A stretch of DNA of 64,000 nucleotides from Acidihalobacter yilgarnensis (GTDB lineage: Bacteria; Pseudomonadota; Gammaproteobacteria; DSM-5130; Acidihalobacteraceae), in assembly GCF_001753245.1 (NCBI RefSeq), contig NZ_CP017415.1:3280040-3344039 (forward strand), read 5' to 3'. Within the stretch, counting starts at the first letter, position 1, and every line of letters starts with the position of its first letter. A model generated the notes under the pieces. That model did not search any database, was not told where the DNA came from, and worked only from the letters and a program-made list of their open reading frames with translations. Both the position numbers and the translations under genes were made by a program. This document shows, piece after piece, positions 22,714 through 29,978 of the stretch.

Positions 22714-23448
22714 GTGTCCGTCTCAGATATGTTTGATTATTTTGCCCTGAGTGTTGCGACAAGCCTGGAGGAGGTGGACGCCCTACAGCACTTGCGTTGG
22801 TCTGTGTACTGCGATGAGTTGGGCTATGAGCATCCCAAGAACTGCCCTGGACAGCGGGAAGGTGACGAGTACGACGAAATGTCGGTTCACTTGTATATCA
22901 CGCATCGGGAAAGCGGGGCTATCGCGGGATGCGTCCGCGTCATCGCCGCCGAAAGCTTACCGGAGGGCATCGCGTTACCACTTGAGGTTGCTTATCAATT
23001 ATCACTAGAACAGCCTGACCTCGCGGGTATTCCAAGGCAGAATCTGTTTGAGATTTCGCGTCTGGCTATTGCGACGACATTTCGTCGCCGCCGCTCAGAT
23101 GACGCGTTATCGCAAGAATACGGGTTGTTAAGTGATGTAGCACAGGCCAGGACAAACTTTTCTTATTTGGCGGTGCTGTTGTACTCGGCGGTTATTGCCC
23201 TGGGAGAGTCCTATGGATTTGCCCACGCCTGCGCGATGATGCAGCCGCGGCTCGTGCGATTGCTGTCAAGGTCCGGGCTTTTGTTTCGACAGCTAGCTCC
23301 GCTGATCGAGCATCACGGACAACGGGCGGCCTACTTCAGCAGCCTTTCAGACGCTACTACCGGAATGAATGGCGACATGCGGCAATTGGTGGGTCGAATT
23401 ACGCGACAGCTGGGGTCGCAACAGATGCGGTCTGGTCTCGTATTGTAG
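22714..23448 (+). CDS. FeeM/PEP-CTERM-type N-acyl amino acid synthase-like acyltransferase
   Basis: 244-residue protein of the autoinducer-synthase-like GNAT superfamily, resembling the PEP-CTERM/exosortase-associated acyltransferase and FeeM. Typical features are the LRWSVYCDELGYE entry (compare LuxI RxxVFxxE), EGDEYDEMSVHLYI, the GCVRVI strand with a conserved Arg, and LFEISRLAIATTFRRRR. It would move a fatty acyl chain from acyl-ACP to an amino acid or similar acceptor. The GTG start at 22714 has AAGGAGG 5 nt upstream; ATGs at 22672 and 22729 are alternatives. The last eight codons (QMRSGLVL) come from the dispersed repeat that begins at 23419, so the natural C-terminus was replaced. No exosortase gene is in the window. 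Confidence 0.75.
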   Translation: MSVSDMFDYFALSVATSLEEVDALQHLRWSVYCDELGYEHPKNCPGQREGDEYDEMSVHLYITHRESGAIAGCVRVIAAESLPEGIALPLEVAYQLSLEQPDLAGIPRQNLFEISRLAIATTFRRRRSDDALSQEYGLLSDVAQARTNFSYLAVLLYSAVIALGESYGFAHACAMMQPRLVRLLSRSGLLFRQLAPLIEHHGQRAAYFSSLSDATTGMNGDMRQLVGRITRQLGSQQMRSGLVL

Positions 23449-23627
23449 CATCCATCATCATTCGCTATGACGCCCGCTACGCCGCGTATCTCACGCATTA
23501 AATTTTCACGAATGCAACATAGAGAGGCCTGACCCTGATTTTACTGATCCGGTGCTACAAAACAGGACCTGACCCCGTTTTGTTCCTGATCCGATGCTAC
23601 AAAACGGGACCTGACCCCGTTTTCTTC
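23419..23627. repeat. GGGGTCAG-type dispersed repeat, copy A (longest)
   Basis: The unit begins CAACAGATGCGGTCTGG, runs through TAGCATCCATCATC and ACGAATGCAACATAGAGAG, and ends with two tandem copies of a palindromic module, GCTACAAAAC(A/G)GGACCTGACCCCGTTTT. Nearly the same 150 bp recurs at 26394, with shorter pieces at 24007, 27764 and 30077. The palindromic core (AAAACGGG-ACCTGA-CCCCGTTTT) is the uninterrupted form of the site used by the IS110 element. GGGGTCAG-type units of this kind are often linked to REP-associated tyrosine transposases; none is seen here. Confidence 0.85.
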
Positions 23628-24402: not shown

Positions 24403-24472
24403 GGCTAACGTTTGAGTTCACCCGAGAGGAGTCGCGTAGCTGTGACGAATCGGGTGGAACGATTTGTTAAGC
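24403..24472 (-). repeat. Integron attC recombination site
   Basis: Read on the minus strand it runs GCTTAAC-AAATCGTTCCACCCGATTCG... to ...CGGGTGAACTCAAA-CGTTAGCC. The outer core sites (GYTTAAC and GTTAGCC), the CCACCCGA/TCGGGTG arms and the extra unpaired base are the standard attC layout. The stop codon of the TIR gene lies inside the first core site. Orientation matches the minus-strand cassette genes. Confidence 0.85.
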
Positions 24473-25276
24473 ACTGATCACTCGTTTAATTGCATTTGCG
24501 ACTTCAGGTAACCCTGCACCATTTTTCCACGATATATATTTATATGCTTTCATCATTGAGTGCATATTTTCTGGCGAAACTCCTGCGTTAAGCATAAGGA
24601 CCTTTTTATTATTTTTCATTAATTCCATAAAAAATGTGGAAAATTCTGTCATAGGCCAACCGCTTGCACTGTCAAAAAAGTGGTCTGTAAGAATAAAAAG
24701 ACCAACATCAGAATTTTCAATTCCTTCATTTACTTTTAAGTAGATATTGTCGCCATAGTCAATTTCATAACTATCCAGCCAAGTAGCTATGTCATTAGCC
24801 TGAAGGTATGCATTTAACGGATTTACGATCAATTCTTTATCTTTCGAAGAATGACTTATAAATACTTTAGATTCATTTCTTTTCATACACTCATACTGTG
24901 GATTTGCTTTTTCAAATGCATTTTTTTCTGGGAAAATGAAAAGACGATTCCCACCTTCCTCTGTCAAAACTAGATCAACCATGAAATCATCAATGAACGT
25001 CTGAACATTGTAATTAAAAGTGTCTTTTAGAAAGATGTTATGGCGTTTGACCTTATCTGGATATTTTTCCCTCAGCCAAGACTCGAATTTTACGGGGTCA
25101 CCCTGCAAATTTACCGCGATACTAAATGATAAGCAGTAGGGATTATTATTTACTACTGCACCAATCATTGTTGCATAGTCCTTATCAAATTCTTTCAACA
25201 AGTCTTTGATAAAAGAGCGTTCTTTTACACGAGAGCCATAATCACATTCAAAAACATACATATAATCGTGAGTCAC
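24467..25276 (-). CDS. TIR-domain protein on an integron cassette (candidate antiphage effector)
   Basis: 269 residues. The C-terminal half (about 136-265) is a TIR domain: KVFISHSSKDKELIVNPLNAYL, then ATWLDSYEIDYGDNI, SDVGLFILTDHFF, and GWPMTEFSTFF, where the Glu is at the position of the catalytic residue in NAD-cleaving TIRs. KVLMLNAGVSPENM follows. The N-terminal 135 residues are not recognised; they may be a sensor domain. Bacterial TIR proteins commonly deplete NAD+ or make cyclic ADP-ribose signals during phage infection. Codon use is AT-rich, unlike the core genome. attC sites on both sides show it is a mobile cassette. Antiphage activity is an inference. Confidence 0.85.
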   Translation of the reverse strand: MTHDYMYVFECDYGSRVKERSFIKDLLKEFDKDYATMIGAVVNNNPYCLSFSIAVNLQGDPVKFESWLREKYPDKVKRHNIFLKDTFNYNVQTFIDDFMVDLVLTEEGGNRLFIFPEKNAFEKANPQYECMKRNESKVFISHSSKDKELIVNPLNAYLQANDIATWLDSYEIDYGDNIYLKVNEGIENSDVGLFILTDHFFDSASGWPMTEFSTFFMELMKNNKKVLMLNAGVSPENMHSMMKAYKYISWKNGAGLPEVANAIKRVISA

Positions 25277-25289
25277 ATCTATTCCTTGT

Positions 25290-25357
25290 GCTTAACGTTT
25301 GAATTCACCGGCCTTGCGCGGCTTTATGCGCAAGGCCGGTGGAATGATGGGTTAGCT
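25290..25357 (-). repeat. Integron attC recombination site
   Basis: On the minus strand it runs from GCTAAC (25356) through ATTCCACCGG to GAATTCAAACGTTAAGC (25290). The central hairpin has perfect 13-bp arms ACCGGCCTTGCGC/GCGCAAGGCCGGT. It overlaps the stop codon of the nuclease gene, as expected for a cassette. Confidence 0.9.
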
Positions 25358-26329
25358 ATTGGTGTCATGGCGATGGAAGTCGGTAACTCGTTCGACGCCT
25401 GTCAACGAGCAGACTTCGGCAATACAGTTGTCTAGGTTGTGGTAGATCTCAGTTCCAGTAAAACGCAGTACATGCCAGCCTTGGCCAAAAAGCCAACGGT
25501 CTCGCTGAGCGTCATGGGTTCGCTGATATTTCGTCTTGTGATATTCGTGTCCATCGAGTTCGATAGCAATCTTCTTATCGGGAATGGCGAAGTCAAGCCG
25601 ATATTTCCCGACCTTGTGCTGCGGGTAAATATGAAGATCAAAAAACGCCAATTCGTAAAATATCTGCTCCAGCGGTGAGTCAAATATGTTTGGAGTGAAC
25701 TCATGACGAATTGCAGGGTCTCGATTGAGGAGTTTGGATATGATTTCTTCATCTTCAAATATCGGTAGAACTAGCTCCCCGTCTTTGGTCGCTCTTGCCT
25801 TGGTTCGATCTATCGCTGGCACGACTTTGTCCGGAGACGCCGCGTAGTACATATCAACGATGCGGCAACCAACGCAGGGGCAGTTACCAGACTTGCAACC
25901 TTTCGCTATCACACGTTGCTCGACTGTTGGCGAAATGTATGAGTGAGTGAACGTCCCATCCGGCTCAGTTCTAACAATTAGCAGAGCGTCGGGGGTTCGA
26001 AATATTTCATCAAGCTTCGGCTTTGTGACTGTTCCGTTATAGCGCTTGTATTTCTCGTGCTTCAGGCCAAGCAAGAAGATTCCGCCTTCTTCGGTAAACG
26101 GGTAAGCCATCAGGGTCGCATCAAGCTCTTCTCCCCGTTCGATATCAAGTATCGGGTACTGTTCTTCGTTGTTCCCCACGGTTGCCTGAAGCAACACGCA
26201 GCCGATGCAGCCACAGCCGTCGCCCTTGCACTCCTTGGTAAGCACGAAGTTGCCAAAAGCCTCGGAGATGACTACGAAAATCCTCCTTATATGGTCGGTA
26301 TAGACGACGGTGTAATGGTCAGGCGTCAC
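25352..26329 (-). CDS. Cassette-borne PD-(D/E)XK (DUF559-type) nuclease with duplicated Cys4 motif
   Basis: 325 residues. The C-terminal region (about 215-315) is a DUF559/Vsr-like endonuclease: SPLEQIFYELAF, then YRLDFAIPDKKIAIELDGHEYH, with D246, E257 and D259 as the probable metal-binding residues, and GWHVLRFTGTEI. The N-terminal 210 residues contain two related halves, each with C-x4-C-x-C-x2-C (C34/39/41/44 and C145/150/152/155), an ATxG/AASP loop and a PILDI or PAIDR strand. I know no family with this duplicated motif; it may bind zinc or an iron-sulphur cluster. The gene is followed by attC and is AT-richer than the core. A restriction or defence role is plausible but unproven. Confidence 0.8.
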   Translation of the reverse strand: MTPDHYTVVYTDHIRRIFVVISEAFGNFVLTKECKGDGCGCIGCVLLQATVGNNEEQYPILDIERGEELDATLMAYPFTEEGGIFLLGLKHEKYKRYNGTVTKPKLDEIFRTPDALLIVRTEPDGTFTHSYISPTVEQRVIAKGCKSGNCPCVGCRIVDMYYAASPDKVVPAIDRTKARATKDGELVLPIFEDEEIISKLLNRDPAIRHEFTPNIFDSPLEQIFYELAFFDLHIYPQHKVGKYRLDFAIPDKKIAIELDGHEYHKTKYQRTHDAQRDRWLFGQGWHVLRFTGTEIYHNLDNCIAEVCSLTGVERVTDFHRHDTNS

Positions 26330-26345
26330 GTCGCAATCTCAAAAT

Positions 26346-26393
26346 GGCTAACGCCACACATCACCGGCGGCAAAAAGCAGCGCTTTTGGGTCT
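26346..26393 (-). repeat. Partial attC site interrupted by the dispersed repeat
   Basis: On the minus strand this is a right-half attC, GCCGCCGGTGATGTGTGG-CGTTAGCC, directly upstream of the nuclease gene start. Its other half is replaced at 26394 by a GGGGTCAG-type repeat. It shows that another cassette once lay upstream in the array. Confidence 0.65.
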
Positions 26394-26545
26394 CAACAGA
26401 TGGGGTCTGGTCTCGTATTGTAGCATCCATCATTATTCGCTATGACGCCCGCTACGCCGCGTATCCCACGCATTAAATTTCCACGAATGCAACATAGAGA
26501 GGCCTGACCCTGATTTTACTGATCCGATGCTACAAAACGGGACCT
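26394..26545. repeat. GGGGTCAG-type dispersed repeat, copy B (split by IS110)
   Basis: Nearly identical to copy A at 23419 over about 150 bp. It is cut at GGGACCT by the IS110 element and resumes as GACCCCGTTTTCTTC at 27741-27755. Together they give the uninterrupted palindrome AAAACGGGACCTGACCCCG. Confidence 0.9.
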
Positions 26546-27740
26546 CGTATCTTGAATGTGCCGCTGTAAATCGAGAAGCTGTAGAGGATGAAGCGGCCGG
26601 GCCGGCAGAGGCTGGAGAGACATTAGGCGATAGAGCCTGTGGGTCAGATAAGTCCGCCGGCCCGTTGACTCGTTCATCGATTCCGAAGGGTAACTTAGGC
26701 CATGTTGTAGAGACAGAGCCTGGATACGAGGATGGATAAAATGAACGAGCATGCCGTCGGCATTGATGTTTCGAAAAAGAAACTCGACATCTGTGTGATC
26801 AGCAGCGAGAAGTACAAGACCAAGGTATTGAGCAACACGGCTGCCGGCCACGCCGAGCTGCTTCGGTGGCTGGCGGGTAGGCAGTTGCCGGTGGCTACGC
26901 CGATCGTACTGGAAGCCACCGGTCCCTATAGCGAAGCGGTGGCGATCGCCTTAGCCGATGCAGGCTGGGCGGTGAGCGTGGTCAATCCGGCGCGTGTCAC
27001 GGGCTTTGCCCAAAGCGAATTGAGCCGCAACAAGACCGATCAAGCCGATGCCAAGCTACTGGCCAAGTTTGCGCAGCGGGCAGCGCTCGCCATCTGGAAG
27101 CCACCGAGCCGCGAGGTGCGCGAGCTGCGGGCGTTAGTCGATCGGCTGCAGGCACTGATCGACATGCGCCAGCAAGAACTCAATCGGCTCGAAGCGTTGG
27201 CGCAGGGGCTGCCCTCGAACGTCACGGATATGGTCCATGAGCACGTAGCCTGGCTCGATGAACAGATCCGCAAGCTTCAGGACGCGATTGACGATCACAT
27301 CGACGGCAACCCGGCGCTCAGGGAAGACGCCCAACTGATGCAGTCCATCCCCGGCATTGGGAAACGGAGTACAGCGCAATTTCTGGCCTACATCGGCGAT
27401 ACGCGCCGCTTCAAGAGCGCCAAGGCGTTGGCCGCCTTCATTGGCCTGAGCCCGAAACAGAAACAATCGGGTGCGTCGGTCAGGGGACGCACGACGATCT
27501 CAAGAGCCGGCCATGCGGCCGCCCGCCGGGCACTGTACATGCCCGGTTTGGTGGCCAAGCGGCATAACCCGGTCATCATCGCTTTAGCCAAACGCCTGGA
27601 AAGCAAAGGCTTGGCACCGAAGGCCATTATCGGCGCCAGCATGCGCAAGCTCGTGCATTTGATCTATGGCGTGATTAAATCGGGGCGACCGTTCCAGGCT
27701 GGAATCCCCTTGCGCGGACTTGAAATCCAAGAGGGTATCT
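26546..27740 (+). mobile_element. IS110-family insertion sequence (about 1195 bp)
   Basis: Carries a DEDD transposase and a long 5' leader. A CT dinucleotide occurs at both junctions (26544-26545 and 27739-27740) and only once in the empty repeat (GGGACCTGACCCC). The element therefore inserted at a CT core with no longer target duplication and no terminal inverted repeats, as in IS110 elements such as IS621. Its target is the palindromic centre of a dispersed repeat. Confidence 0.92.
26590..26731 (+). ncRNA. Predicted bridge RNA of the IS110 element
   Basis: The 5' leader matches both DNA substrates of the element. A 9-bp stem (CGGGCCGGC 26598-26606 with GCCGGCCCG 26656-26664) encloses a target loop. 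GGGTCAG (26641-26647) is the exact complement of the right target CTGACCC. A weaker left guide may be GAGACAT (26617-26623; 5 of 7 with GGGACCT). Then AGGGTAACT (26687-26695) matches 8 of 9 bases of the left donor AGGGTATCT (27732-27740). GATACGAG (26723-26730) is the perfect complement of the right donor CTCGTATC (26544-26551). The order target loop then donor loop, and the strand sense of each guide, are as described for IS621. Exact RNA ends are unknown. Confidence 0.8.
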
Positions 27741-27742
27741 GA
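26741..27742 (+). CDS. IS110-family transposase (bridge recombinase)
   Basis: 333 residues. The N-terminal RuvC-like DEDD domain carries the acidic residues in VGIDVSKKKLDICV, VLEATGPYSE and NKTDQADAK. A coiled-coil linker follows (about 125-195). The C-terminal Transposase_20 domain has LMQSIPGIGKRSTAQFLAYI, FIGLSPKQKQSG and GRTTISRAGHAAARRALYM, where the nucleophilic Ser of IS110 enzymes lies. The ATG at 26741 has GAGGA 8 nt upstream; an ATG at 26732 is too close to it. The final TGA is made of the last base of the element plus GA from the flanking repeat. The gene appears intact and probably active. Confidence 0.92.
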   Translation: MNEHAVGIDVSKKKLDICVISSEKYKTKVLSNTAAGHAELLRWLAGRQLPVATPIVLEATGPYSEAVAIALADAGWAVSVVNPARVTGFAQSELSRNKTDQADAKLLAKFAQRAALAIWKPPSREVRELRALVDRLQALIDMRQQELNRLEALAQGLPSNVTDMVHEHVAWLDEQIRKLQDAIDDHIDGNPALREDAQLMQSIPGIGKRSTAQFLAYIGDTRRFKSAKALAAFIGLSPKQKQSGASVRGRTTISRAGHAAARRALYMPGLVAKRHNPVIIALAKRLESKGLAPKAIIGASMRKLVHLIYGVIKSGRPFQAGIPLRGLEIQEGI

Positions 27743-27763
27743 CCCCGTTTTCTTCTTTGCGCG

Positions 27764-27835
27764 CAACAGATGGGGTCTGGTCTCGTATTGTATGCGCTGA
27801 TTCTATGCTACAAAACTGGACCTGACCCCGTTTTT
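27764..27835. repeat. GGGGTCAG-type dispersed repeat, copy C (internally deleted)
   Basis: Begins CAACAGATGGGGTCTGGTCT as in copies A and B, runs to ATTGTA, then jumps to the palindromic module CTATGCTACAAAACTGGACC followed by TGACCCCG. The middle 110 bp of the unit is missing. Confidence 0.85.
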
Positions 27836-28502
27836 CGTTTTCACGCTCTAAAAATTAGCAGGCTTAATTCACTGGTCAAGTTTATTCTGAAGTTTTTTCT
27901 TGGCTTGAGTTAAAAATCGAACAAAATCTTTTGCGTCTGAAAAATAATTCTTAAAAGCCATCCTTATTTCTTCACTTGTATCTGCCTTCACCAAAACAAT
28001 ATCAAGATCCGGATTTTCTTTCTCACGCCTAAATAGGTCGTCAAGTGCCTCAGTTGAATCCCTATAAGAGAAGACCTCCAGATCACCATTGGGCTTGAAC
28101 ACCAGAATAGTATTTCGATTTTGGGTAGCTTCAGCCTCCGCTGTATTAAGTCCCGTCAAAGTTCTAATGAGATTCAATTCATTATCCAAATAATCGAATT
28201 CATGCAGCAGATCACCATCAGACAAATCTGAACAAGCGCCCTTACTATTTTCGTAAACTCTCGCTAAAATCTCATTCGCAAGTGCCATGCAATCTATATA
28301 GCGGCGATCACCTTGTTGAAACTTTGGCTGATTTTCCGTAACAAACCCAATAACTTCAACTGCTGTTGCCCAAGCGTGCTGAACCAGTGTTCTGTATTGA
28401 ATCTCAATAAGCAAACCTTTATATGTATCCCCGTGTTTAGATCTCACATCATAAGTATAAACATCATGAATTCCTCTATATCCAGTCTTTTTTGGATACT
28501 TA

Positions 28503-29593
28503 CTCATAAGTCAGTAGATTAGGGAACAAATGGCGTCGACTTTGGTCATAATTGGGTATGAAGAACGATGGACGGACATTGACCCGCGAGACGCTGGAAG
28601 CGATGCGCTTCATGGCGCTGGAGCGGATGGTGGAAGGCGAATCGCCGGCAGCGGTCTCGGCGTCGTTCGGGATGCACCGGACTTGGGCGTACAAGGTACG
28701 GCTGAAGGCGCGCGGGCGCGGCCAAGGCAAGCGGGCCCTGCAGTTGCGGCGGGCCCCCGGGCGGCGCCGGAAGTTGACCGATGCCCAAGGACGGCAAGTG
28801 TTCCGGTGGGTCAACGGCAAGAACCCGCGGCAGTATGGCTTCGACTTCGGTTTATGGACACGCCAGATCGTGCGCGAACTGATCGCACAGCGATTGGGCG
28901 TTTCGCTGAGCTTGGCCTCAGTGGGCGCGTTGCTGGCGCGGGTCGGCTTGACTGCGCAAAAGCCACTCCAGCGTGCGTATCAGAGGGACCCTGACGCGAT
29001 CGAGCGCTGGCAACGGGAAACCTATCCGGCGATTGCTCGCCAAGCCAAGCGGGACAAGGCCGATATCTATTTTTGGGACGAGTCAGGTTTTCGTGCCGAC
29101 TCGGTGCACGGCAAGACCTGGGGCGCCAAAGGACACACGCCGGTCGTCTCGGTGCCCGGACAACGGCAAGGGATCAGTGCCGCCTCGGCGGTCAGTGCCA
29201 AGGGGGCGTTCTGGTTCGCGACTTACAAAGGCGGCTTGAACGGCGACCTGTTCGTGACCTTCCTGCAGCGCCTGATGCGCGGCCGACGCAAGCCGCTGCA
29301 TCTGATCCTCGATAATCTGCCTGCGCACAAGACCCGCGCCGTCAAAACGTATGTCGCCAAGTCAAAGGGCAAGTTGACGTTGCACTTCCTGCCCGGCTAT
29401 GCCCCCGAACTCAATCCCGACGAGCTGGTCTGGAGCCACGCCAAGCGCACGGGCAATGCCCGCCGGCCGTTGCGGGCCGGAGAACGTCTGGAAGATCGCA
29501 TCCAGTTTCAACTCGCCAACATGGCCGCGCAGCCGAATCTGATCCGCTCGTTCTTCAGGCATCCAAGTGTTGCCTATATTACTGACTGCTGAG
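28503..29593 (+). mobile_element. Intact IS630-family element (1091 bp)
   Basis: Flanked by TA at 28501-28502 and 29594-29595. Terminal inverted repeats of about 22 bp: the left end CTCATAAGTCAGTAGATTAG aligns with the right end (minus strand) CTCAGCAGTCAGTAATATAG. It carries one complete transposase. It is the probable parent or helper for the 588-bp derivative at 12157-12744. Confidence 0.93.
28558..29592 (+). CDS. IS630-family transposase
   Basis: 344 residues. The N-terminal half has two helix-turn-helix units (through MHRTWAYKVRL and VSLSLASVGALLARVGL). The DDE core is complete: IYFWDESGFRADS (first Asp), LHLILDNLPAHKT (second Asp) and GYAPELNPDELVWSHAKR (Glu). The ATG at 28558 was taken as start; a TTG two codons earlier is possible. 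The stop codon lies inside the right inverted repeat, normal for compact IS630 elements. Confidence 0.93.
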   Translation: MKNDGRTLTRETLEAMRFMALERMVEGESPAAVSASFGMHRTWAYKVRLKARGRGQGKRALQLRRAPGRRRKLTDAQGRQVFRWVNGKNPRQYGFDFGLWTRQIVRELIAQRLGVSLSLASVGALLARVGLTAQKPLQRAYQRDPDAIERWQRETYPAIARQAKRDKADIYFWDESGFRADSVHGKTWGAKGHTPVVSVPGQRQGISAASAVSAKGAFWFATYKGGLNGDLFVTFLQRLMRGRRKPLHLILDNLPAHKTRAVKTYVAKSKGKLTLHFLPGYAPELNPDELVWSHAKRTGNARRPLRAGERLEDRIQFQLANMAAQPNLIRSFFRHPSVAYITDC

Positions 29594-29978
29594 TAATATA
29601 GTCATACTTATCAATTTCATTCTTGCGCTTATGCTTAAATTTCGCCTTGTGAAATTGCTTTCGGAAACGATAAAGATCATCAAGCGACTCAAAAATAAGC
29701 CTGCATCCAGCAATATCGTCCATCCTCGATAATTCCATTTTTGGGAGGCGCCGGAGCTTGTTAAATATAGTATTTCTGCGCTTGTGCCTTTGTGCAACAA
29801 CAATGGACTGATCCCGAGTCCTCGCTCGAAGACTTGCTTGGAACGTATTCAATACAGCGCGGTGAGCTGCCCGCCACTCCTCAATAGAGCGCAGATCATC
29901 TGGGGTTTCCACTCCCGCTCGAACGTTTGCCCCCGCTCTATTTACGCGGCTTTTAGAGCCTCCCGGAAACTCAGACAT

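What the first reader, a model, noticed from the sequence alone, without database searches (positions are those of the whole stretch)
26544..27742. IS110 element whose leader reads as a bridge RNA matching its own ends and target
The 5' leader holds guide-like segments in the IS621 order: GGGTCAG is complementary to the right target, AGGGTAACT is 8/9 identical to the left donor, and GATACGAG is perfectly complementary to the right donor. A 9-bp stem encloses the target loop. The left target guide is weaker (GAGACAT, 5/7 with GGGACCT). This allows a testable prediction of where the element will insert.
Basis: partly seen in the sequence, partly recalled or inferred. Interest (0 to 1): 0.78.

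Follow-up and report, generated by a model that had tools for sequence, protein, structure and literature searches.

The report
IS110 jumping gene with bridge RNA
A small bacterial jumping gene carries an RNA whose loops match both its own ends and the repeated DNA it lands in, as in the known bridge-RNA family, and in it and its closest relatives the landing site completes the stop signal of the jumping enzyme's gene.

Summary
Window 26544-27740 is an IS621-type IS110 element (CT cores at 26544-45 and 27739-40; DEDD recombinase, 46% tblastn identity to IS621). Its 188-nt leader encodes a predicted bridge RNA. The four guides, in IS621 order, score 28/31, reached by 0 of 2000 shuffles. Across ten leaders (this and nine relatives) 97.7% of pairs hold, 17 of 28 with changes on both sides. 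With ends set by donor motifs, left guides fit their own targets better than other elements' targets (0 of 20000 permutations, 34 elements); right guides likewise (28 elements). The weak part is this copy's left target guide: 4/7 in register, and 5/7 anywhere is at chance. The target is a REP-like repeat; three copies lie within 0.7 kb upstream of a RAYT-like gene. A TTGAAA-17-TATCTT promoter pair is split between the two ends and would form in the excised circle. This is a new member of a known kind. One twist I did not find described for IS110: the recombinase gene has no stop of its own; TGA is core T plus the guide-chosen target GA in 12 of 13 clade members, whereas 24 of 24 more distant ones stop before the element's end. 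Its functional meaning is untested.

The parts
26544..27740 (+). IS110/IS621-type element, core CT at both ends (26544-26545 and 27739-27740)
   Evidence: 96% identical uninterrupted paralogue 23413-23570 followed by TGACCCC; same ends in relatives
26732..27742 (+). IS110 recombinase (336 aa from 26732; most relatives start at the MNE-like position of 26741); DEDD = D12, E61, D103, D106, serine S246
   Evidence: Pfam PF01548 8e-29 and PF02371 1e-25; NCBIfam NF033542 7e-71; invariant columns of A2; PDB sequence match IS621 8wt6 1.7e-80, ISCro4 9t56 3.8e-78
26560..26735 (+). predicted bridge RNA (start inferred about 7 nt after the -10 box, end approximate)
   Evidence: CM R1 match 26596-26732, 145 bits (this leader is in the training set); fold z -3.0; covarying structure
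26598..26606 (+). 5' strand of the stem enclosing the target-binding loop
   Evidence: 11 of 13 pairs of the enclosing helix have changes on both sides
26656..26664 (+). 3' strand of the stem enclosing the target-binding loop
26615..26623 (+). left target guide (GAGAGAC plus core positions AT)
   Evidence: 7-mer starts 71 nt after the core C in 9 of 9 clade members with a left end; weak fit here, 4/7
26625..26638 (+). inner hairpin between the two target guides
   Evidence: helix 3, 4 of 4 pairs with changes on both sides
26641..26647 (+). right target guide GGGTCAG
   Evidence: 7/7 complement of CTGACCC
26648..26649 (+). presumed target-loop handshake guide AT, complementary to donor positions AT
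   Evidence: AT in 9 of 10 leaders (L016 has TT); role by position from IS621 (passages), inference
26687..26695 (+). left donor guide AGGGTAACT
   Evidence: 8/9 to right-end AGGGTATCT; AGGG/ACGG variants agree with own right end in relatives
26723..26730 (+). right donor guide GATACGAG (contiguous pairing, unlike IS621)
   Evidence: 8/8 complement of CTCGTATC; IS621 pairing from passages
26548..26553 (+). -10 box TATCTT of the circle-junction promoter
   Evidence: TTGnnn-17-TAT[C/A]TT in 9 of 9 elements with both ends found by the script
27720..27725 (+). -35 box TTGAAA of the circle-junction promoter, inside the recombinase CDS
27740..27742 (+). recombinase stop codon TGA = core T + target GA
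   Evidence: 12 of 13 clade members, this one included
26537..26543 (+). left target ACGGGAC
27741..27745 (+). right target GACCC
23413..23585 (+). paralogous uninterrupted target repeat (CT at 23569-23570)
27797..27838 (+). another copy of the target repeat downstream
   Evidence: family D1

Best explanation
An IS621-type IS110 insertion sequence that recombines through a bridge RNA. After excision as a circle, the right-end -35 box and left-end -10 box come together and transcribe the leader. The leader RNA folds into a target-binding and a donor-binding loop. The recombinase uses one loop to pair with (GAGAC)CTGACCC in a REP-like repeat and the other to pair with its own joined ends (AGGGTAT-CT-CGTATC), and exchanges strands at the CT core. 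Shown here: boundaries, target, guides, covarying structure, guide-target covariation in relatives, and the split promoter sequence. Inferred from IS621: excision, transcription, RNP formation and strand exchange. Also shown as sequence: in this clade the recombinase reading frame runs to the very end of the element, and the chosen target supplies its stop codon.
For: Domains and catalytic residues. Empty-site paralogue. Four guides in order 28/31, 0 of 2000 shuffles. LTG 71 nt from the core in 9 of 9. Structure covariation. CM finds the held-out L014 and, weakly, IS621 and L020. With ends set by donor motif: LTG own 5.97/7 against others 4.50/7, 13 of 34 perfect against 0.5% of off-pairs, 0 of 20000 permutations; RTG own 6.07 against 4.87, 0 of 20000 (28 elements); LDG own 6.59 against 5.71, 0 of 20000 (29 elements). 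Junction promoter pair 9 of 9, also in IS621. Two fragments elsewhere in the genome: L004 sits in the same repeat with both flanks (ACGAGACCT...CTGACCCCG); L002 keeps the right flank CTGACCCC.
Against: The window's own LTG is the worst fit of its clade (4/7), and its core-pairing base is A rather than C. The genome has one full copy only, so recent mobility is not shown. Permutations ignore relatedness, and the donor motifs used to set ends were written, which had used guides. RTG hardly varies within the clade, so its covariation rests on distant relatives. Six of the 28 structure pairs join guide to guide and are nearly invariant, so they are not independent evidence. No RNA data. Rfam: 0 matches up to E = 1.
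Confidence: 0.93

Rival explanations
1. The leader is an ordinary 5' untranslated region and the guide matches are chance.
For: LTG 5/7 is at chance (1876 of 2000 shuffles).
Against: Joint score 0 of 2000; compensatory changes; guide-target covariation in relatives; held-out model matches.
Confidence: 0.02
2. The element had a working bridge RNA but this copy is now immobile: its left guide has drifted, or the site was acquired by other recombination.
For: LTG 4/7 here; its GAGAC fits the GAGACC form of the repeat (seven GAGACCTGACCC copies) better than GGGACC; single full copy.
Against: ORF intact with all catalytic residues; RTG, LDG and RDG intact; four other clade members (L010, L012, L015, L018) also fit only 5/7 in register.
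Confidence: 0.3
3. The missing stop codon and the open frame through the leader are a neutral by-product of a frame change near the C terminus.
For: Of 24 more distant members, 11 stop 18 nt before the core, 10 of them with the TGA of a TTGA -35 box, which the clade reads in another frame; substitutions in the leader show no consistent third-position bias.
Against: Kept in 12 of 13 clade members, the aligned ones down to 51% identity; frame open at least 24 codons in 9 of 9 against 11 of 25 outgroup leaders.
Confidence: 0.8

Closest known systems
IS621 bridge-RNA recombination system (Durrant et al. 2024, PMC11208160; Hiraizumi et al. 2024, PMC11208158)
   Same: Recombinase 46% identical by tblastn, aligned catalytic residues, CT core, leader RNA with target loop then donor loop, LTG-RTG-LDG-RDG order, 17-bp-spaced promoter pair across the circle junction, REP-like target.
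   Different: LTG 71 nt from the core instead of 65; LTG core positions AT, TT, AC, AG or TG rather than CT in 9 of 9 clade leaders; right donor guide contiguous (IS621 discontiguous); no stop codon of its own (IS621 stops 108 nt before the core).
ISCro4 recombinase (PDB 9t56)
   Same: Homologous recombinase over 319 residues.
   Different: Its RNA and target were not compared here.
IS1111-type elements with seekRNA/bridge RNA (Siddiquee et al. 2024, PMC11187229; Durrant section 12)
   Same: DEDD recombinase with an RNA guiding target choice.
   Different: RNA in the right end there; here in the left end, with no right non-coding end.
IS481-family elements whose stop codon lies in the target (ISLxc2, ISLxx4; passage in PMC2516522)
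   Same: Transposase stop codon supplied by the insertion site.
   Different: Another transposase family, with a duplicated NCTAGN target; here a guide RNA pairs with the bases that make the stop.
IS110 elements that insert in REP sequences (Tobes and Pareja 2006, PMC1525189; passages)
   Same: REP sequences as specific targets.
   Different: Other elements and repeats; no guide RNA in the passages seen.

Membership tests
IS110 family, IS110 group (IS621-like, bridge RNA in the left end) | DEDD RuvC-like domain plus Transposase_20 domain with catalytic serine | tested here: met
IS110 family, IS110 group (IS621-like, bridge RNA in the left end) | insertion at a core dinucleotide without other target duplication | tested here: met
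   CT core against the empty paralogue
IS110 family, IS110 group (IS621-like, bridge RNA in the left end) | structured non-coding RNA with two loops in the left end | tested here: met
   predicted structure with covariation; that it is transcribed was not tested
IS110 family, IS110 group (IS621-like, bridge RNA in the left end) | guides complementary to target and donor, in the order LTG, RTG, LDG, RDG | tested here: met
   28/31, 0 of 2000 shuffles; LTG alone weak in this copy
IS110 family, IS110 group (IS621-like, bridge RNA in the left end) | guides covary with targets across relatives | tested here: met
   0 of 20000 permutations for LTG (34 elements) and RTG (28)
IS110 family, IS110 group (IS621-like, bridge RNA in the left end) | promoter formed at the circle junction | tested here: met
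   sequence only: 9 of 9 with TTGnnn-17-TAT; activity not tested
IS110 family, IS110 group (IS621-like, bridge RNA in the left end) | RNA-dependent recombination | not testable with these tools
   needs a bench assay
IS1111 group | bridge/seekRNA in a long right non-coding end | tested here: not met
   right non-coding end has zero length
IS1111 group | subterminal inverted repeats of 7-17 bp | not tested
   not searched for specifically
TIGR-Tas endonuclease | match above the curated cut-off of the family model | tested here: not met
   43.2 bits against a cut-off of 100
RAYT/REP system (as the target) | target repeat flanks a RAYT-type Y1 transposase gene | tested here: inconclusive
   three GAGACCTGACCC copies lie within 0.7 kb upstream of a 287-aa Y1_Tnp protein, but the other 8 Y1_Tnp matches have none in the locus held, and other copies lie elsewhere; RAYT type is my reading

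The most novel reading that the evidence does not exclude
A landing-dependent stop codon: in this clade the recombinase gene has no stop until the guide RNA places the element next to target GA. In the excised circle translation would then run through the junction into the bridge-RNA sequence and make a C-terminally extended recombinase (64 extra residues here, 67 in L009, 24-29 in seven others), which could differ in activity and so couple enzyme form to the circular or integrated state. The absence of an own stop is shown; the functional coupling is conjecture.
Probability: 0.12. Interest if true: 0.65.

Novelty: new member of a known kind. Interest (0 to 1): 0.4.

Why it matters
It adds a well-supported IS621-like bridge-RNA element and clade with a defined target and a contiguous right donor guide, useful for comparing guide rules such as tolerance of a non-C base opposite the core. 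The target-completed stop codon links RNA-guided target choice to the reading frame of the recombinase and can be tested directly.

Tried and rejected
Rfam, up to E = 1, gave no match over 26200-28000. Nucleotide searches of plasmids and phages with the leader found no homologue: one 25-nt match in a Leptospira plasmid and none in phages. Plasmids hold 98 records with a related protein, none at 60% identity or more. The order searched (4 other genomes, two of them of the genus) and 368 other genomes of the class hold no close copy at the thresholds used; 1 of 397 others in the phylum has a 48% relative. The consensus promoter scan of the integrated region finds none. The de novo end-and-guide caller found a different LTG for WIN and failed on L009, L010, L012 and L020, so it was not used for statistics; with donor-motif ends replaced it, though the motifs were written in view, and one of two left-end candidates of L209 and the last of two of L017 were chosen by me. 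In one search WIN's own best left match is 5/7 and at the wrong place. One search read aligned rows instead of loci for some elements and was redone. Coding selection on the leader frame was inconclusive: substitutions at codon positions 1/2/3 were 1/3/7 for L009-L010 but 7/6/7 for WIN-L014. The TTG-20-TA pattern was absent for a number of distant relatives. In one search the script could not place the stop of L191; one search shows it 18 nt before the core. In one search, L011, L013, L029, L002 and L004 gave no match up to E = 1. CM hits L221-L224 and L226-L228 have no detectable recombinase in the held stretch and were not pursued. L021 (26% identity) was not analysed. The host was not identified.

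Full report
What is there. The window holds a 1.2-kb IS110 element. Its recombinase (26732-27742) matches PF01548 and PF02371 and the NCBIfam model for RNA-guided IS110 transposases, is 46% identical to IS621 by tblastn (45% in the alignment), and keeps the residues aligned with D11, E60, D102, D105 and S241 of IS621 (D12, E61, D103, D106, S246). A 158-bp stretch ending at the left core (26388-26545) is repeated at 23413-23570 at 96% identity, and that copy runs straight on into TGACCCC. This gives the empty site and fixes the CT core at 26544-26545 and 27739-27740.

The leader. The best ordered placement of the four guides scores 28 of 31; of 2000 dinucleotide shuffles none reaches it (maximum 25). 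The left target guide alone is not significant (5/7 occurs in 1876 of 2000 shuffles) and in the register shared with relatives fits only 4/7.

Relatives. A pattern-filtered scan of 84,980 species genomes found 13 loci encoding a relative. Seven have the close-clade left end next to the gene (L009, L010, L012, L015-L018); L020, a more distant relative, has both ends; L014 has its leader separated from the gene; L011, L013 and L019 lack a recognisable left end; L021 was not analysed. L131 came from a viral contig. The two other genomes of the genus and two of the family that are held have no close copy. In WIN, L009, L010, L012 and L014-L018 the left-guide 7-mer starts exactly 71 nt after the core C (9 of 9); it is 65 in IS621 and 66 in L020. 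Among eight of these, with guides read by me in that register, own-target matches exceed permuted ones (44 against a mean of 37.5, P = 0.008 over all 8! permutations; six leave-out variants P 0.0016-0.048).

Structure. On ten leaders (A3: this one and nine relatives) RNAalifold gives 28 pairs; 97.7% of 265 cells pair, 17 pairs have changes on both sides, and no shuffle of 500 reaches any of five measures. The enclosing stem alone has 11 of 13 such pairs and the inner hairpin 4 of 4. Six pairs (helices 2 and 4) join guide to guide and are nearly invariant, so they say little. A covariance model of these ten finds the held-out L014 leader (E 2.4e-34) and, weakly, L020 (0.004) and IS621 (0.007) at the right places.

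Guide-target covariation. I took 42 elements (31 loci; WIN, seven close relatives and L020; L014; IS621), dropped one duplicate (L218), and set the ends by donor motif; 34 had a left end (7 had none). Best match of the own left target in the leader window: mean 5.97 of 7, against 4.50 for other elements' targets; 13 of 34 perfect against 0.5% of off-pairs; 0 of 20000 permutations. Right target (28 elements): 6.07 against 4.87, 0 of 20000; left donor (29): 6.59 against 5.71, 0 of 20000. Distant members plus WIN (and L017 in the left test) gave 0 of 20000 as well (27 and 22 elements). Permutations do not correct for relatedness, and the motifs were written in view. In a distant relative, G250, four copies whose first 240 nt are identical sit at four places with the same core, CCCGAC|CT|ACAG; a fifth copy (L236) was cut in the stretch I fetched.

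Target. The pattern GCTACAANACGRGACC has 39 matches at up to 2 mismatches in this genome, against 20 for the reversed control; the 19 best (0-1 mismatch) look like one family, many followed by TGACCCC. GGACCTGACCCC has 6 exact copies (control 1) and GAGACCTGACCC 7 (control 1). Three of the seven lie within about 0.7 kb upstream of a 287-aa Y1 transposase that I read as RAYT-like, but the other 8 Y1_Tnp matches have none nearby, so 'REP-like' is firmer than 'RAYT-associated'. REP targeting by IS110 elements is known (passages of PMC1525189 and PMC11208160). Fragments of the element at two other places keep the same right target (L002, L004), and L004 also a left one.

Circle. Joining right end, CT and left end creates TTGAAA-17-TATCTT; all 9 elements with both ends found show TTGnnn-17-TAT[C/A]TT, and IS621 shows TTGCAG-17-TATTAT. 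The consensus scan of the integrated region finds no promoter.

Stop codon. The recombinase frame runs to the last base of the element; TGA is core T plus target GA in 12 of 13 clade members (WIN, L009, L011-L019, L131). The exception, L010, has CTCGTATATCC where the target should be. Of 24 more distant members with a right end, all stop 18-305 nt before the core: 11 at 18, of which 10 are the TGA of a TTGA -35 box. L191, which shares this clade's right target and left-end sequence, is one of these. In the circle the clade's frame would continue through the leader: fully open in WIN (64 codons) and L009 (67), 24-29 codons in the seven others; 9 of 9 have at least 24, against 11 of 25 outgroup leaders in that frame. 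Shuffles leave the whole WIN leader open in 1.5% and L009's in 4.8%. These counts are post hoc and the sequences related; codon-position counts are inconclusive. 'Stop codon' has 0 occurrences in the main texts of PMC11208160, PMC11187229 and PMC11208158; 'termination codon' has 0 in the first and 1 in the second, a figure label. A search for IS110 with 'termination codon' listed 10 papers, of which I looked at passages in two; two wider searches were seen as listings only. Stops inside the target are described for IS481-family elements (PMC2516522). I claim only that I did not find it described for IS110 in these searches.

Mechanism. By homology with IS621 (sections 6, 7, 8 and 12 of PMC11208160 read; passages of PMC11208158) the RNA bridges target and donor, and serine-RuvC composite sites exchange strands at CT. 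The AT after the right target guide and the G after the right donor guide also fit the handshake-guide rule described there (inference). Differences from IS621 in this clade: the left guide does not carry CT at the core positions (AT, TT, AC, AG or TG in 9 of 9); the left donor guide mismatches the base before CT in 9 of 11 leaders (not L016, L018; read); the right donor guide pairs contiguously in this element.

Verdict. The part not already expected from IS621 is the target-completed stop codon of the clade.

Noticed in passing
window 24404-24470 and 25292-25355: Two attC-like sites ((T/C)TAACGTTTGA(A/G)TTCACC ... GGTGGAA(T/C)GAT) flank a TIR-domain protein gene (24467-25276, -), as in an integron cassette; a DUF559/REase_MTES_1575 gene (25352-26329, -) follows. 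attC identity judged by eye.
   Followed up: partly
window 27869-29978: A RelA/SpoT-type gene matching the PADLOC candidate PDC-S33 in two halves (profile 5-134 and 134-343 of 349) is split by an IS630-like DDE_3 transposase gene at 28552-29592.
   Followed up: partly
window 23413-23570 and 26388-26545: 158-bp direct duplication (96%), copies 2975 bp apart, carrying the target repeat in both.
   Followed up: no
L010:3999-4010: The right end of this relative is followed by CTCGTATATCC, like a left end, instead of a target; a tandem or donor-donor event is possible.
   Followed up: no
L004:1493-1533: About 40-bp remnant between two CT cores: a few left-end bases and about 25 bp of right end, with left flank ACGAGAC and right flank GACCCCG: a miniature derivative in the same target.
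   Followed up: no
[quoted passage not shown] of the 34 left ends only the clade and L191 have CTCGTAT instead of CTTGTAT-like ends.
   Followed up: no
L014:1656-3000: In this relative the leader and the recombinase gene lie about 1.2 kb apart, apparently separated by another inserted sequence.
   Followed up: no
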